This document shows positions 24,408 to 30,754 of a DNA stretch of 64,000 bases, one piece after another (position 1 is the first letter of the stretch; every line of letters begins with the position of its first letter). The stretch comes from Gemmatimonadaceae bacterium (GTDB lineage: Bacteria > Gemmatimonadota > Gemmatimonadetes > Gemmatimonadales > Gemmatimonadaceae). The notes below the pieces were generated by a model. The model was not told where the DNA came from. It ran no database searches and was given only the letters and a program-made list of their open reading frames with translations. Made by a program: the position numbers and the translations under genes. Location: assembly GCA_020852815.1 (NCBI GenBank), contig JADZAN010000024.1, positions 186,001 to 250,000 on the forward strand, written 5' to 3'.

Positions 24408-25622
24408 ATGGCACTCGATCCCGATCCCTCGCGCGACGCCCTCTCGCGCCGCGCCGCGATCACCCGCCTCGCCGCGGGCGTCGTCGCCGCCCCGGCCATC
24501 CTGCGCGGGCGCTACCCGCTCTTTCGCCCGCATGATGCGCGCTACGCCATCGAATACTCGGCGCGCGCCATCAAGCTGGTGCAGGAGTCGGTCGTCATCG
24601 ACCTGCTCAACCAGTTCCGCTTCGCCGACTTCGCCGAGAAGCCGCCCAAGAGCCAGCTCTGGCTCAGCAAGCCGCGCAGCATGACGCCGGCCGATTGGGA
24701 GGTGTATCGCACCAGCGGCTACACGGTCATCTGCCTTGGCCATGCCCCGCGCGACTACGCCGACGGGCTCCGCTTCTTCGCCGAGTGGAACGGCTTTGTC
24801 GCCGAGTACCCGGAGTGGTTCGCGCGCGTGGATGATGCGCGCGACTTCGAGGCGGTGAAGAAGGCGGGGAAGGTGGGGATCATGATCACCTTCCAGAACT
24901 CCGATCACTTCCGCGCGCCGGACGACGTCGACCAGTTCTACTCGTTAGGGCAGCGGCTGTCGCAGCTGACGTACAACTACCAGAACCGCATCGGGAGCGG
25001 CTTTCTGGAGGAGCGCGACGGCGGGCTCACCGTGTTCGGCAAGTCCATCGTGCAGCGCATGGAGCAGGTGGGGATGGCGGTGGATGTGTCGCACTGCGCC
25101 GACCGCACCACGCTCGACACGCTCGATATCGCCAAGCGACCGGTTGTCTTCTCGCACGCGAGCGCGCGCGGGCTCATGCCCGACCATGCGCGCTGCAAGA
25201 CCGATGAGATGATCACCAAGATGGCGAAGACCGGCGGGGTGATGGGAATCCCGTTCCTGCGGATGATGATCTCGCCCACCGAACCGACCACCATCGAGCA
25301 CGCGCTCAACCACTTCGACTATGTGCGCAAGCTCGTGGGGGTCGAGCACCTGGCGATGGGGAGCGACATGGACGTGGTGGGGAATCCCAACCCGGTGAAC
25401 GGGGCGGGGCAGGGGAACCCGGCGACGCCTAACTTCGAACGGTATCACCTGCACGTCGGCGAGAAGGGGGAGTGGCTGCTGACCGTGCCGGGGCTGGATC
25501 ATCCCAAGCGGACCTTCGACGTCGTCGAGGGGCTCATCCGCCGCGGCTACACCGACCAGCACATCGCCATGGTGCTGGGCGGGAACGCGATGCGCGTCTT
25601 CCGGAATCTGTGGGGGCAATGA
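24408..25622 (+). CDS. M19 membrane-dipeptidase-like protein with altered metal site
   Basis: A 404-residue protein with a Tat-like N-terminus (SRRAAITRLAAGVVAAP). The M19 (renal dipeptidase) fold is indicated by VDVSHCADRTTLD, PVVFSHASARGLMPDHARC, and the C-terminal MGSDMDVVG with VLGGNAMRVF. Two His and the late Asp of the zinc site are present. However, the first His-X-Asp pair is missing (VVIDLLNQFRFADF stands where DGHND would be), and the bridging Glu also seems replaced (MITFQNSDHF). It may be a non-peptidase relative. The start is the ATG at 24408, before the Tat-like signal. Confidence 0.8.
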   Translation: MALDPDPSRDALSRRAAITRLAAGVVAAPAILRGRYPLFRPHDARYAIEYSARAIKLVQESVVIDLLNQFRFADFAEKPPKSQLWLSKPRSMTPADWEVYRTSGYTVICLGHAPRDYADGLRFFAEWNGFVAEYPEWFARVDDARDFEAVKKAGKVGIMITFQNSDHFRAPDDVDQFYSLGQRLSQLTYNYQNRIGSGFLEERDGGLTVFGKSIVQRMEQVGMAVDVSHCADRTTLDTLDIAKRPVVFSHASARGLMPDHARCKTDEMITKMAKTGGVMGIPFLRMMISPTEPTTIEHALNHFDYVRKLVGVEHLAMGSDMDVVGNPNPVNGAGQGNPATPNFERYHLHVGEKGEWLLTVPGLDHPKRTFDVVEGLIRRGYTDQHIAMVLGGNAMRVFRNLWGQ

Positions 25623-25879
25623 TGCGCGCCTCGGGGACCTTCACGGTCAAGCTCACGCCGCGGGCGGGCGATGCGTATGTCGACGGGAAGTCGTTAGGGC
25701 GCCTGACGATCGACAAGGTTTTCGAGGGCGACCTGTCGGGAACGAGCGTGGGGCAGATGTTGAGCGCAATGTCCGCGGTGAATGGATCGGCCCCCGACTC
25801 GAGGACCGACGGGCTGGAGTGGTTGCACGGGCACATGCAGATCATCATCGAGGGCGGGGTGCACTCGTATGTTTTCTAG
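25622..25879 (+). pseudogene. DUF3224 gene with an internal deletion
   Basis: An 85-residue protein. Its start matches DUF3224 (ASGTFTVKLTP, then LTIDKVFEGDLSGTSVGQML), and its end matches the DUF3224 C-terminus (TDGLEWLHGHMQIIIEGGVH, then SYVF). Intact family members are about 130 residues, and the middle part between VNGSA and PDSRTDG (the strands around a segment like ERVTGTL...FVLQH) is absent. The frame is kept across the junction, so a short product may still be made, but the beta-barrel could not close. Its ATG overlaps the stop of the M19 gene (ATGATG at 25619-25624), so it is translationally coupled. Confidence 0.65.
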
Positions 25880-25952: not shown

Positions 25953-26542
25953 TCAGTCCCCGCCCAGGCATCGCTGCAGGAGGTCGGCGATACCAAGTAT
26001 CGCCGCCCAACGCGTCAGTTCCGTGCGATCAAGCTTCGATTTCTGCAGCGCGACGATGGCGAGGACGTCGCGCCATTGCCGATCCGACGTTTCTCCACCG
26101 CGCCGAAACCATTCCAACTTGCGGAGGATGGTGTGCTCCGCGGTGTCGAACCAGAGACTGAGCGGAGGGTCCTCCCGCACCAGGACGGCAATGCGCGTAC
26201 GTAGCCGCTCACCTTCAAACGCGTCCGACCCGGCCATGAAGAAGTCGATCTTCACGCCAGCCAGCATAGGAACGGCGTTGAATGACTCGTGAGTACGTAT
26301 GGCATCGCGTGCGGCCTCCTCATCCACATAGTAGTCGGGGCGCAGGGCAGGGCAGCACACACGCGATCGACCTTCTCGAGCGGGATGTCGGCGACTATGT
26401 CCACATCCATGGTCGCGCGAGGCTCACCGTGAATGGAACTCGCGAGCGACCCCCCGATGACATACGGGATTGCCGCGGACTGCAAACGTGTCGCAACGTC
26501 AGCGGCGATCGCGAGTACGTCGGGGAGCTGTTCAGGGCTCAT
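25953..26542 (-). pseudogene. Nucleotidyltransferase (AbiEii-like), frameshifted
   Basis: On the minus strand from 26542, the first frame encodes PYVIGGSLASSIHGEPRATM and DVDIVAD, the GG-S...D-X-D core of minimal nucleotidyltransferases of the AbiEii/DUF6036 type. After VCAALP the frame breaks. The continuation lies in another frame: RPDYYVDEEAARDAIR, VKIDFFMAGSDAFE, EHTILRKLEWFRRGGETSDR and a C-terminal helix ending at 25953. The break coincides with a 5-bp tandem duplication, CAGGG twice at 26343-26352; removing one copy restores a single ~195-codon reading frame. The gene overlaps the upstream 85-residue gene by 11 bp. Confidence 0.8.
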
Positions 26543-26789
26543 GGCGCGATGTCGAGTACACCCGAGCCGTCAACTCCGGTCCGAGCCGACGTTTGATGGC
26601 CGCCAGATGCAGCTCGGCGGCGGTCATCCACGGGTGCCGTCTCCGCAATCCTTCGCGCTCCAGCCAGAGCACTGCGCGCGTGAGGGAAGCGGCTTGCGCA
26701 AGCCGCGCAGCGGGTGTCATGGACCGCCAGATCGCCAACTGTGCATCGGTGGCGTCCAGTGACGTGTCAGAGGAGAGACGATGCGTCAT
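26532..26789 (-). CDS. Short helical protein encoded upstream of the nucleotidyltransferase
   Basis: An 85-residue protein, predicted mostly helical (LAIWRSMTPAARLAQAASLT, then RAVLWLEREGLRRRHPWMTA and AELHLAAIKRRLGPELTARV). Proteins of this kind commonly sit directly upstream of nucleotidyltransferases of the AbiEii type, and here the two genes overlap by 11 bp. The function is unknown; a partner or antitoxin-like role is possible. Its N-terminal half recurs as a degraded copy fused to the beta-propeller gene at 28193. Confidence 0.7.
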   Translation of the reverse strand: MTHRLSSDTSLDATDAQLAIWRSMTPAARLAQAASLTRAVLWLEREGLRRRHPWMTAAELHLAAIKRRLGPELTARVYSTSRHEP

Positions 26790-26885
26790 ACCATGACAAT
26801 CTGAGGTCGTCCGAGGGCACGCGCCACCGCTGGAGGCGCTACTTCTTCGCTGTCGCCGAAGCGGGGGTGTACGCCGTCGCCGTCA
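26790..26885 (+). pseudogene. Remnant of a duplicated upstream region plus gene fragment
   Basis: The bases 26794-26833 (CATGACAATCTGAGGTCGTC and on to GCGCCACCGCT) match 28191-28236, the region upstream of the gene at 28330. They are followed directly by a fragment that, in the frame TGG at 26831, reads RRYFFAVAEAGVYAVAVTG, similar to GRYTIAVPEGGVYAVATSG inside the protein encoded at 28330. Roughly 290 bp between these two parts are missing relative to the intact copy. It has no start codon and is not expressed as a gene. Confidence 0.65.
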
Positions 26886-28193
26886 CCGGGTCAGCCGGTA
26901 CAGCTCGACGAACTCGACATCATCCTCGTCGCGGCGGACGCCGAGGATCCAGTCGCGCCCGGCGTCAAAAAGGCGAAAGCGAACCGGCAGGCGCAACTGC
27001 GCGAGCCAGTCACCGGTCGCGGAGTAGACCTGCCAGGTGGTGGCGCTGTCCGGCGATGGGTGCAGGGTGCCGTCGACCGACTCAGCGGGATCGTAGGAGC
27101 CCACCCACAGCTCACCGGTCGTTCCCGCGACGAGACGTCCGATCTGCGGACGCACGCGCGCGAACTCCGTGCGCTCGCGAATCTCGCGACGATAGCCGGC
27201 CGCACGCGGGTCGGGGTTCGCCTTGTCGATTCCGGCGAAGAAGCGATCACGATCGCTTTGGGTGATCGCGGCGGTGCGGGCATCGGGGCGCCGGATCTCG
27301 AGCTGCGGTTTTCCGTCGGCGAGGTAGCAGCGCACGATGTAGTCGCTCGAGGACGACTCGCAGAAGCGATTGTCAAAGACCGCGAGCTGCAATCGCGCCG
27401 CATACGCCACCGCGGTGGGCTCGCCCGTGCCTCTGCGGTTCACGGTTCCGGCAGCGACGCGTCGCAGCGAGTCGGTGCGAGACGCCGACACGCGCACGAG
27501 CATCGCGTCGATGGCGCTCTCGCCTGACGGAGCCCGTTCGAGCGGATCGGGATAGAAGTAGCCGAACGTGGCGCCATCGCCAAAGTAGCCGGCGACTTCG
27601 AGGCGACGCCCAAACGCCGACGTGCGAGGGATCGTGCGTACAAACTTGCCATCCGGCCCGAACAGCTGTCCGATGCCGGCGGCATCCATACCGAGGATGG
27701 AGTCGCGCAGTGCATATGCGCGCCAGAGCACGGGGAACTCGCCCGGTCCGCGTCCCTTGCGACCGACGGACTGCAGGTGCCGACCCCTCGAATCGAAGAG
27801 CCGCAGCTCCGCCTGCCGCATCGCGGCCACGACGATGCTGCCTCTCGGCGTGCGAAAGGTCGACGCGACCATCGAGAGTTCCTGCGCGCCGGAGTCCGCT
27901 CCGCCGATGGAGACGGTGGGTTGGGCGGAGAGCACCCAACGTTGTTGCGGCTGCGCGCTCAGCGGGTAGTTGCGGGTGCGAGGCTGGGCGCTTACGCTAG
28001 TCGCGATTGCCGGCGCGAGCGGCAGAAGGACGAGAGCGAAGGCACGGCGTAGCCGCGCGCGCTCAAGCCAACGCGCGGCGCGCGTGAGGGCACCGGCTTG
28101 CGCAGGCCTCCCGGCAGAAGGCTTGGACCGCCAGGCACCTAACTGCGTGTCGCGGGGGGGGGGGACGTATCGGAGGATGAGGAGTGGGGTCAT
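26883..28193 (-). CDS. 6-bladed beta-propeller protein with chimeric N-terminus
   Basis: A 436-residue protein. The body carries the propeller-type motifs SVGRKGRGPGEFPVLWRAYA, FGPDGKFVRTIPRTS and a C-terminal blade (WQVYSATGDWLAQLRLPVRF), as in exported 6-bladed beta-propeller proteins. The signal-like segment FALVLLPLAPAIATSVSAQ lies about 52-70 residues in. It is preceded by a stretch (LGAWRSKPSAGRPAQAGALT, RAARWLERARLRRA) homologous to the 85-residue protein encoded at 26532-26789. I find no ATG, GTG or TTG between the two parts, so translation probably starts at the ATG at 28191-28193 and the signal is internal, unless a rare start is used. Confidence 0.75.
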   Translation of the reverse strand: MTPLLILRYVPPPRDTQLGAWRSKPSAGRPAQAGALTRAARWLERARLRRAFALVLLPLAPAIATSVSAQPRTRNYPLSAQPQQRWVLSAQPTVSIGGADSGAQELSMVASTFRTPRGSIVVAAMRQAELRLFDSRGRHLQSVGRKGRGPGEFPVLWRAYALRDSILGMDAAGIGQLFGPDGKFVRTIPRTSAFGRRLEVAGYFGDGATFGYFYPDPLERAPSGESAIDAMLVRVSASRTDSLRRVAAGTVNRRGTGEPTAVAYAARLQLAVFDNRFCESSSSDYIVRCYLADGKPQLEIRRPDARTAAITQSDRDRFFAGIDKANPDPRAAGYRREIRERTEFARVRPQIGRLVAGTTGELWVGSYDPAESVDGTLHPSPDSATTWQVYSATGDWLAQLRLPVRFRLFDAGRDWILGVRRDEDDVEFVELYRLTR

Positions 28194-28329
28194 GCCGTGA
28201 GAATCTGAGGTCGTCCGCGGGTGTGCGCCACCGCTCGGTGCGGCCGCGACACTGCGAACTCGACAACGGCCAGCTATGTTGTTGCGTCCGGTGAGCCACA
28301 GCTCAACTCGACGATCAGGAGGGCGATGA

Positions 28330-29127
28330 ATGTCCGACATCATCAACTGGCGCGCTCCCGCCTTCCTCTCGGCGCTCCTCCTCGCCGCCACTCCCCTCCA
28401 CGCGCAGTTCATCAAGGGGACGGTCCGCGACAGCGAGACGCGCGCCCCCGTGCGCAGCGGCTTCGTGGTGCTCCTCGACTCCACCGCGGGCGTCGTGATC
28501 GGGACCGCGGTCGACTCGCGCGGGCGCTACACCATCGCCGTCCCCGAGGGCGGGGTGTACGCCGTCGCCACCAGCGGGACCGGCTACGTCACGAACATCT
28601 CGACCTGGATCGCGATGGTGGCGACCGACTCGTTCGAGGTCGACGTCAAACTCGCGCGTGCAGTCAACACGCTCGCGCCGATGGTCATCGAGGCGCAGCG
28701 TGACTCGCTCCGCAACATCGGCATTCCCGGGTTGATGTCCAGGATCGTCGCCGGCACCATCGTCACGCCGGCCGAGGTGGCGATCGCGGCGCAGACGGCC
28801 GTGTCGCCGTACGACGTGCTCCAGACGCTCAACATCGCGACGCTGGAGCTCAAGACCATGTACCTCGACGGCGAAAGGCAGGGGGAACGCCATATTCACG
28901 GGGGGATGTATCGCTGCATCGCCTACCGCCGCACGGGCGGGTGCGTGACGGTGGTCGTGAACGGGCAGCGCTACAGTTCGCGGTCGGACCTGGTGGAACT
29001 GGATGGACTGTTCGGCGCGACCGACATCTCGTACATGGTGTTCCTGCGGCCGAGCGAGGCGGGGCTGCTCTACGGCGAGGAGACGACCAACGGGGTGCTG
29101 GTGATTGTGCGCAAGGGGCAGCACTGA
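28330..29127 (+). CDS. Exported protein with carboxypeptidase-regulatory-like domain and plug-like domain
   Basis: A 265-residue protein with AGGAGGG six bases before its ATG and a signal peptide ending in LHAQ. Residues ~27-110 form a CarboxypepD_reg-like beta-sandwich (IKGTVRDSETRAPVRSGFVV, GRYTIAVPEGGVYAVA). The second half resembles a TonB-receptor plug (VSPYDVLQTLN, YLRPSEAG-like end with YGEETTNGVLVIVRKG) without a barrel. Such lone proteins are frequent in Gemmatimonadota-like genomes; their role is unknown, probably cell-envelope related. Divergent from the propeller gene, with a 136-bp spacer that is partly duplicated at 26794-26833. Confidence 0.78.
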   Translation: MSDIINWRAPAFLSALLLAATPLHAQFIKGTVRDSETRAPVRSGFVVLLDSTAGVVIGTAVDSRGRYTIAVPEGGVYAVATSGTGYVTNISTWIAMVATDSFEVDVKLARAVNTLAPMVIEAQRDSLRNIGIPGLMSRIVAGTIVTPAEVAIAAQTAVSPYDVLQTLNIATLELKTMYLDGERQGERHIHGGMYRCIAYRRTGGCVTVVVNGQRYSSRSDLVELDGLFGATDISYMVFLRPSEAGLLYGEETTNGVLVIVRKGQH

Positions 29128-29181
29128 GGCAGCCGGGTGCGCGGCTGGCTCTGGCGCACTTGGAGGGCTACACTCCACGAC

Positions 29182-29472
29182 ATGACTGTCCGCGAGCAGG
29201 TAGGCGCAATGCGCGAGGAGATTCTCCGGGTCGCCGAAGCACACGGCGCTCGTCACGTGCGCCTGTTCGGGTCCGCCGCTCGAGGGGAGGAGTCGATCGG
29301 CAGCGACGTGGATCTGCTCGTGACCATGGCGCCGGGACGTACGTTGCTGGATCTGGCGCGGTTGGAGGAGCGATTGGAACGTCTGCTGAATCGCCGAGTC
29401 GACGTGGTGCCGGACACAGGTTTGCGGGAGCCGTTTCGTACCACCGTGCTTCGGGATGCGATGGATGTCTGA
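29182..29472 (+). CDS. mntA: MntA-type nucleotidyltransferase antitoxin
   Basis: A 96-residue minimal nucleotidyltransferase. The active-site signature is GSAARGEESIGSDVDLLV, with the Gly-Ser and both Asp residues intact. In the HEPN/MNT (type VII) toxin-antitoxin modules, MntA adds AMP to HepT and inactivates it. Here the HepT gene overlaps its 3' end by 8 bp, the usual arrangement. The start is the ATG at 29182, the last before the conserved helix (VREQVGAMREEILRVAEAHG). Confidence 0.9.
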   Translation: MTVREQVGAMREEILRVAEAHGARHVRLFGSAARGEESIGSDVDLLVTMAPGRTLLDLARLEERLERLLNRRVDVVPDTGLREPFRTTVLRDAMDV

Positions 29473-29821
29473 CGCGCGGGAGATCTCGATCGAACGGCTC
29501 GCGCACATGGTCGAGGCGGCGGACGCCATCGCGTCGTACGTCGCTCGCGGTCGCGAAGTCTTCGAGGCCGACTCGGCGGTGCGAGATGCCATCCTGTTCC
29601 GCATTGTGGTGATTGGCGAAGCGGCCAAGGCCGTGGCGCAGCGCGATCCAGAACTCGCCTCCGAAATGTCGGAGGTGGAGTGGTCCGCGTTGGCGCGGAT
29701 GCGGGACCGCATCACGCATCAGTACTGGGCCGTCGACACCCAGATCGTTTGGGACACGGCACGGGATGACCTGCCGCTCGTGCGAGACGCGATCGCTGGC
29801 GCGCTGAAGCGATTGTCCTGA
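29465..29821 (+). CDS. hepT: HepT-type HEPN toxin
   Basis: A 118-residue HEPN-domain protein with the RNase motif R-X4-H in ARMRDRITHQYWAVD near residue 80, followed by the Tyr used as AMPylation site in characterised relatives. Helical regions ISIERLAHMVEAADAIASYV and AILFRIVVIGEAAKAVAQRD match the family. HepT cleaves RNA when free of MntA. The ATG at 29465 overlaps the mntA stop, giving translational coupling; another in-frame ATG lies 9 bp upstream. Confidence 0.9.
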   Translation: MSDAREISIERLAHMVEAADAIASYVARGREVFEADSAVRDAILFRIVVIGEAAKAVAQRDPELASEMSEVEWSALARMRDRITHQYWAVDTQIVWDTARDDLPLVRDAIAGALKRLS

Positions 29822-30315: not shown

Positions 30316-30534
30316 TTACGCCACGGACTCTTCTATCGGAACACGGATGTCGCGGCAGATCTGGCGCGGGAGTGACGGAGCGATATCGCAGCCACTGTGG
30401 ACGGGGACCGTCGTGACGCGACCGTCATCATGTCGGAACTGCTTGTGAGAACCCCGCTGCCGGACCTCGACGAAGCCGAGGCGCTCGAGACGAGCCATGA
30501 CCTCACGCGGCTTGAGGACGGGAATTGAACTCAC
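30316..30534 (-). CDS. hicA: HicA-family toxin
   Basis: A 72-residue protein of the HicA/YcfA double-stranded-RNA-binding-like fold: [20 protein letters not shown], then RGSHKQF with the catalytic His, and [17 protein letters not shown]. HicA degrades mRNA and is held inactive by HicB. The gene starts 10 bp downstream of hicB on the same strand, so the two form a module in the antitoxin-first order. Confidence 0.92.
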
Positions 30535-30544
30535 GTAAACCGCG

Positions 30545-30754
30545 CTACGCGACCAGGATGGTTTGCGTGCCGACGAACTCCGCCTCGAGCGGGGGCTCGC
30601 CGTCTTCGAGCAGCATGGCGATGACTTCCCGCAGGTTGGAGTGCAGTTCGTCGAGGGTGTCGCCCTGGCTGTGGGCGCCCGGAAAGCCAGGGACGTACCC
30701 GACGAAGACGTGGGTCTCAGGATCGCGCTCGATGACGGCAGTGTAGGTGCGCAT
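30545..30754 (-). CDS. hicB: HicB-family antitoxin
   Basis: A 69-residue protein with the HicB partial RNase-H-like fold: [40 protein letters not shown], and a short tail (GTQTILVA). It has no C-terminal DNA-binding helix domain, unlike longer HicB proteins, so autoregulation may work differently. It is encoded first in the hicBA pair. Confidence 0.92.

What the first reader, a model, noticed from the sequence alone, without database searches (positions are those of the whole stretch)
26640..28330. Segmental duplication around a propeller gene that acquired a foreign N-terminus
The sequence of the 85-residue gene and its upstream region (26650-26835) is repeated at 28045-28236, with about three-quarters identity by eye. 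At the second copy the first ~52 codons of the 85-residue gene run in frame into the beta-propeller protein's signal segment. At the first copy the region is followed by a fragment of the gene at 28330. The simplest account is duplication, insertion of the propeller gene and loss of the rest.
Basis: partly seen in the sequence, partly recalled or inferred. Interest (0 to 1): 0.6.

Follow-up and report, generated by a model that had tools for sequence, protein, structure and literature searches.

The report
Duplicated antitoxin start fused to propeller
In this bacterium an old local duplication put a second copy of a small antitoxin gene's control region and first 50 codons in frame in front of a secreted propeller protein that has no usable start codon of its own, a natural-looking case of a gene borrowing its neighbour's start.

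Summary
Window 26650-26838 (5' half and upstream region of the 85-residue gene) recurs in the same orientation at 28054-28242 at 74-81% identity (E about 1e-22), found nowhere else in the genome. Copy A runs directly into a 56-bp remnant (codons 66-83) of the gene at 28330. Copy B's first 50 codons run in frame into the propeller's signal segment, and no ATG, GTG or TTG lies between 28193 and that segment.

The 85-residue gene is a MenA1-like antitoxin next to a frameshifted MenT1-like nucleotidyltransferase. Both copies keep a CAGATT box 8 nt before the ATG. Similar boxes precede half of the menA genes sampled in the class, so the repeat probably carries a leaderless promoter.

One tandem duplication of an ancestral menT-menA-Carb-propeller block gives the menA::propeller junction directly (promoter and start capture). 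Deletion of the spare Carb copy and loss of the distal propeller would follow. The ancestor was not found.

The 3.9-kb block is missing from the same site in both sister species, and no searched genome has the junction. Translation from 28193 is inferred. Known mechanism, well-preserved natural example; modest interest.

The parts
26532..26789 (-). intact 85-aa menA1-like antitoxin gene (copy A)
   Evidence: Pfam Rv0078B-related antitoxin E=0.01, below cut-off; homologues 38-59% identical, next to nucleotidyltransferase genes
25953..26542 (-). menT1-like nucleotidyltransferase, frameshifted near 26340 at a doubled CCCTG
   Evidence: tblastn of the intact G173 homologue matches in two frames, 63% and 70% identity; the homologue matches MenT1 structure 8an4 at E=1e-4
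26650..26838 (-). duplicated segment, copy A: menA 5' part plus upstream region
26798..26803 (-). CAGATT (-10-like box) 8 nt before the menA ATG, copy A
   Evidence: NANATT 5-10 nt before the start in 8 of 15 menA loci, null mean 0.08
26835..26890 (+). remnant (codons 66-83) of a second copy of the Carb gene at 28330; about 280 bp missing between it and the upstream repeat; its end overlaps the propeller stop codon
   Evidence: 80% identity to 28523-28578, offset 1688 instead of 1404
26883..28043 (-). six-bladed beta-propeller coding sequence with signal peptide; native stop, no native start
   Evidence: family alignment with homologues about 35% identical; AlphaFold pLDDT about 95 over the propeller; best folds are NHL propellers
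28044..28193 (-). menA-derived first 50 codons fused in frame to the propeller (copy B)
   Evidence: 61% aa identity over menA residues 15-50, E=2e-8; only ATG/GTG/TTG upstream of the signal peptide within copy B
28054..28242 (-). duplicated segment, copy B
28202..28207 (-). CAGATT box 8 nt before the fused ATG, copy B
28154..28164 (+). 11-G run (poly-C in the coding strand) inside the fused N-terminus
   Evidence: one of about 19 G-runs of 10 or more in the genome
28330..29127 (+). intact secreted protein gene with carboxypeptidase-regulatory-like domain (Carb), the full copy
   Evidence: Pfam PF13620 E=2e-9; AGGAGG 7 nt before its ATG

Best explanation
An ancestral block ran, on the + strand, menT(-) menA(-) promoter region Carb(+) propeller(-), with Carb and propeller convergent. 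One tandem duplication had one break inside menA (after codon 50) and the other at the propeller's start codon. It joined the menA leaderless promoter, ATG and 50 codons in frame to the propeller, which then depends on menA's start. The redundant copy-A Carb gene was later deleted from both sides, leaving codons 66-83, and the deletion stops exactly at the propeller's stop codon. The distal propeller copy was lost. Shown: the direct repeats, the in-frame junction, the missing native start, the remnant and the conserved promoter-like box. Inferred: the ancestral order, the single duplication event, and translation from 28193.
For: The repeat is far beyond chance and local. The junction sits at the homologue's start codon position. 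No ATG/GTG/TTG lies between 28193 and 27935. The propeller keeps its family motifs, ends at the family's usual stop (YRLTR*) and folds confidently. The promoter-like box is kept in both copies, and similar boxes precede menA in other genera. A single tandem duplication predicts exactly the order and strands seen, and both flush ends are then explained by selection for an intact, expressed propeller. Promoter capture by tandem duplication through illegitimate recombination is documented in bacteria (PMC11111574).
Against: No genome with the unduplicated order menA-Carb-propeller was found. No remnant of the distal propeller or of copy-A Carb beyond 56 bp exists in the window. The two closest Carb relatives (G030 and the own-genome paralogue) are not next to propellers. 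In GC-rich DNA an open 50-codon stretch is weak evidence: about 53% stay stop-free under neutral substitution. A 50-residue extension before a signal peptide may hinder export.
Confidence: 0.5

Rival explanations
1. One reading: the menA-Carb segment was duplicated first and the propeller coding sequence was then inserted between the copies, followed by loss of the rest.
For: The propeller coding sequence is flush at both ends with no flanking DNA; propellers are a multicopy family here, 18 matches in this genome.
Against: Needs an extra event landing exactly at the duplication join. No terminal inverted repeat or target duplication was found at its ends and no transposase among the neighbouring genes scanned; no donor copy above 36% protein identity.
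Confidence: 0.2
2. The two copies were never one sequence in this genome. DNA from a related lineage, carrying its own diverged menA-Carb region joined to the propeller, integrated by a single crossover (Campbell-like), leaving two diverged flanks.
For: A/B third codon positions are only 58% identical, against 67-70% for orthologues in sister species, yet the block is absent from both sisters' sites. It also gives a repeat-insert-repeat layout.
Against: Still needs a prior menA::propeller fusion in the donor; no donor found.
Confidence: 0.15
3. Replication template switching copied the propeller between two passes over the menA-Carb region in one event.
For: Short shared bases at the joins (GCG at the 280-bp deletion; arginine codons shared at the menA join).
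Against: Would need a template copy elsewhere, now gone or diverged to about 35% protein identity.
Confidence: 0.08
4. On expression rather than origin: the in-frame fusion means nothing. Copy B is dead promoter debris, and the propeller is a start-less pseudogene or uses a non-standard start such as CTG 28025. (This can be true under any of the origin models.)
For: No Shine-Dalgarno before 28193; copy B has diverged at conserved menA positions; long open frames are common in GC-rich DNA.
Against: The propeller is complete with its family motifs after a divergence at least as deep as that between species; the promoter box and frame are kept despite two indels.
Confidence: 0.25

Closest known systems
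Promoter capture by tandem duplication in bacteria (TDAH, PMC11111574; Li and Bock 2019 and Anderson and Roth 1978 as cited there)
   Same: Direct repeat of a promoter-bearing segment, new join to a gene lacking its own start signals, short shared bases, no mobile element.
   Different: Here the captured piece includes a start codon and 50 codons, the copies are old (about 75% identical), and the unduplicated ancestor is unknown.
MenAT1 toxin-antitoxin (Rv0078B-Rv0078A, PDB 8an4/8an5; PMC10435456)
   Same: Small antitoxin gene directly before a nucleotidyltransferase toxin gene; relatives' toxin matches MenT1.
   Different: Matches are weak (antitoxin below the Pfam cut-off); this copy's toxin gene is frameshifted; the fused copy keeps only a diverged first 50 codons.
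Six-bladed beta-propeller exported proteins (DUF5128-like; NHL-type fold)
   Same: Fold, GRxGxGPGE and C-terminal motifs, signal peptide.
   Different: No native start; 50-residue antitoxin-derived leader predicted unstructured.

Membership tests
Promoter-capture tandem duplication | Direct repeat containing the promoter region of the neighbouring gene | tested here: met
   A/B repeat, same strand, E=1e-22; promoter-like box in both
Promoter-capture tandem duplication | New join placing that promoter before a gene without its own start signals | tested here: met
   In-frame join, no ATG/GTG/TTG 28193-27935; join at the homologue's start position
Promoter-capture tandem duplication | Unduplicated ancestral order in a relative | tested here: inconclusive
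   Not found in up to 394 genomes of the class; sister species lack the whole block
Promoter-capture tandem duplication | Expression of the target from the captured promoter | not testable with these tools
   needs transcript or proteome data
MenAT1 toxin-antitoxin | Antitoxin of the Rv0078B family | tested here: inconclusive
   E=0.01 here, 3.8e-4 for a 59% identical homologue, both below the curated cut-off
MenAT1 toxin-antitoxin | Adjacent MenT-type nucleotidyltransferase | tested here: met
   Intact G173 homologue matches 8an4 at E=1e-4; window copy 63-70% identical to it
MenAT1 toxin-antitoxin | Intact toxin gene | tested here: not met
   Frameshift at a doubled CCCTG
Mobile-element insertion of the propeller | Transposase, terminal inverted repeats or short target duplication at the propeller ends | tested here: not met
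   No inverted repeats at the ends, no transposase among Pfam hits of the genes in the block

The most novel reading that the evidence does not exclude
The captured antitoxin leader now acts as an expression switch: the 11-G run at 28154-28164, absent from copy A, lies about 10 codons after the only start and would turn the secreted propeller on or off by slippage, so that a duplicated antitoxin leader became a phase-variable leader.
Probability: 0.06. Interest if true: 0.6.

Novelty: new member of a known kind. Interest (0 to 1): 0.36.

Why it matters
In the paper read here, promoter capture by tandem duplication is described mainly from laboratory selections. A natural case in which the repeat, the join and the decaying spare copy can all still be read shows how genes acquire new starts, and suggests that antitoxin genes, which carry compact promoters and short leaders, can supply them.

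Tried and rejected
Searched for the same junction in relatives: a DNA search of 394 class genomes and two genome-contig scans found none. Most short hits are common carboxypeptidase-regulatory motifs, so that call is no evidence for relatives. Considered that the 56-bp remnant might come from any such gene; rejected because copy A's fragment matches only the 28330 gene among 60 relatives and lies exactly where the A/B repeat ends. Considered misassembly: rejected, the copies differ by about 25%. Considered a dispersed repeat: rejected, two copies only. Looked for a propeller remnant after 29127: none. Codon-position divergence of A/B (12, 13, 22 changes at positions 1-3) is too small a sample to show selection on copy B. 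NCBIfam and PADLOC gave nothing for the antitoxin.

Full report
The observation. The 85-residue gene (26532-26789, minus) shares its first 50 codons and about 45 bases of upstream sequence with 28044-28242. Identity is 75% over 26654-26748 and 81% over 26785-26838, at one constant offset of 1404. The whole genome contains only this pair (E=9.8e-23), and the alignment score is about 21 standard deviations above dinucleotide shuffles. Copy A is then followed, with about 280 bp missing, by 26835-26890. That stretch is 80% identical to 28523-28578, codons 66-83 of the gene at 28330. This protein motif is frequent in related genomes (many short hits). However, copy A's own fragment found no other match in 60 relatives, and it begins exactly where the main repeat ends.

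What the genes are. The small gene is a weak match to the Rv0078B-related antitoxins (E=0.01; a 59% identical homologue in G173 gives 3.8e-4, both below cut-off). In relatives it precedes an intact nucleotidyltransferase of about 195 residues that matches the MenT1 structure 8an4 (E=1e-4). Here the toxin gene is broken: the two halves lie in different frames around a doubled CCCTG. The propeller coding sequence ends at its family's normal stop (YRLTR*) and has the family motifs. Its model is a confident propeller with a low-confidence N-terminus (residues 1-63), closest to NHL propellers. The gene at 28330 is a secreted protein with a carboxypeptidase-regulatory-like domain, called Carb here.

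The fusion. No ATG, GTG or TTG lies between 28193 and the signal segment. The nearest homologue with a readable start (G030) begins MSIRACAPVLL, which lines up with RLRRAFALVLL at the join. The native start is therefore gone, and the menA ATG is the only common one close upstream. Relative to copy A, copy B has one +1 and one -1 indel that cancel, so the frame is kept. Open frames survive easily in such GC-rich DNA (53% in a simple simulation), so this alone is weak. No Shine-Dalgarno precedes either menA start. Instead, NANATT stands 5-10 nt before the start in 8 of 15 menA loci across the class, against 0.08 expected (the motif was chosen from the same data). In both copies it is CAGATT, 8 nt before the ATG. 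This fits a leaderless promoter that copy B has kept.

Context and age. In both sister species the dipeptidase and DUF983 genes that flank this region are adjacent (gaps of about 114 and 28 bp). The whole 3.9-kb block with menAT, propeller, Carb and an MNT-HepT pair is therefore absent there. Third codon positions of A and B are 58% identical, against 67-70% for a sister-species orthologue (only 36 codons for A/B). The duplication is thus old, or the copies entered already diverged. No genome searched has the join.

How it most likely arose and works. The order and strands are exactly what one tandem duplication gives if the ancestor read menT(-) menA(-) Carb(+) propeller(-), with breaks after menA codon 50 and at the propeller start. 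The join creates menA::propeller. Later deletion of the spare Carb could reach, but not enter, the propeller's stop codon, which explains the flush end. The far propeller copy has been lost without trace in the window. This needs no separate insertion event and follows a mechanism documented in E. coli and B. subtilis (PMC11111574). The ancestral order, the number of events and the use of ATG 28193 remain inferred. Insertion between existing copies, single-crossover integration of diverged DNA, and template switching remain possible.

Verdict. A real, non-random duplication with a plausible captured start; ordinary in mechanism, instructive in preservation.

Noticed in passing
29137-29821: MNT-HepT type toxin-antitoxin pair directly after Carb, absent from the same site in both sister species.
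   Followed up: partly
30316-30754: HicA/HicB-like pair next to DUF983, also absent from the sister species (860 bp here against about 80-130 bp there).
   Followed up: partly
25953-26542: menT-like toxin gene frameshifted at a doubled CCCTG while its antitoxin gene is intact.
   Followed up: yes
28154-28164: 11-G run inside the fused N-terminus, not present in copy A; could be slippery or a sequencing error.
   Followed up: partly
L047, L049, L116, L118, L119, L122, L123: NANATT box 5-10 nt before menA starts without Shine-Dalgarno: probable leaderless promoters of this antitoxin family across the class.
   Followed up: partly
25622-25879: DUF3224 gene matching only the first half of its profile; a shorter remnant remains at the same site in G001 (L100).
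   Followed up: no
L049:305-3249: In G165 the menAT pair lies between two propeller-like reading frames; only one weakly matches this propeller's profile.
   Followed up: no
26883-28043: The propeller family is expanded: 18 matches in this genome, 26 in G056, none in many relatives.
   Followed up: no
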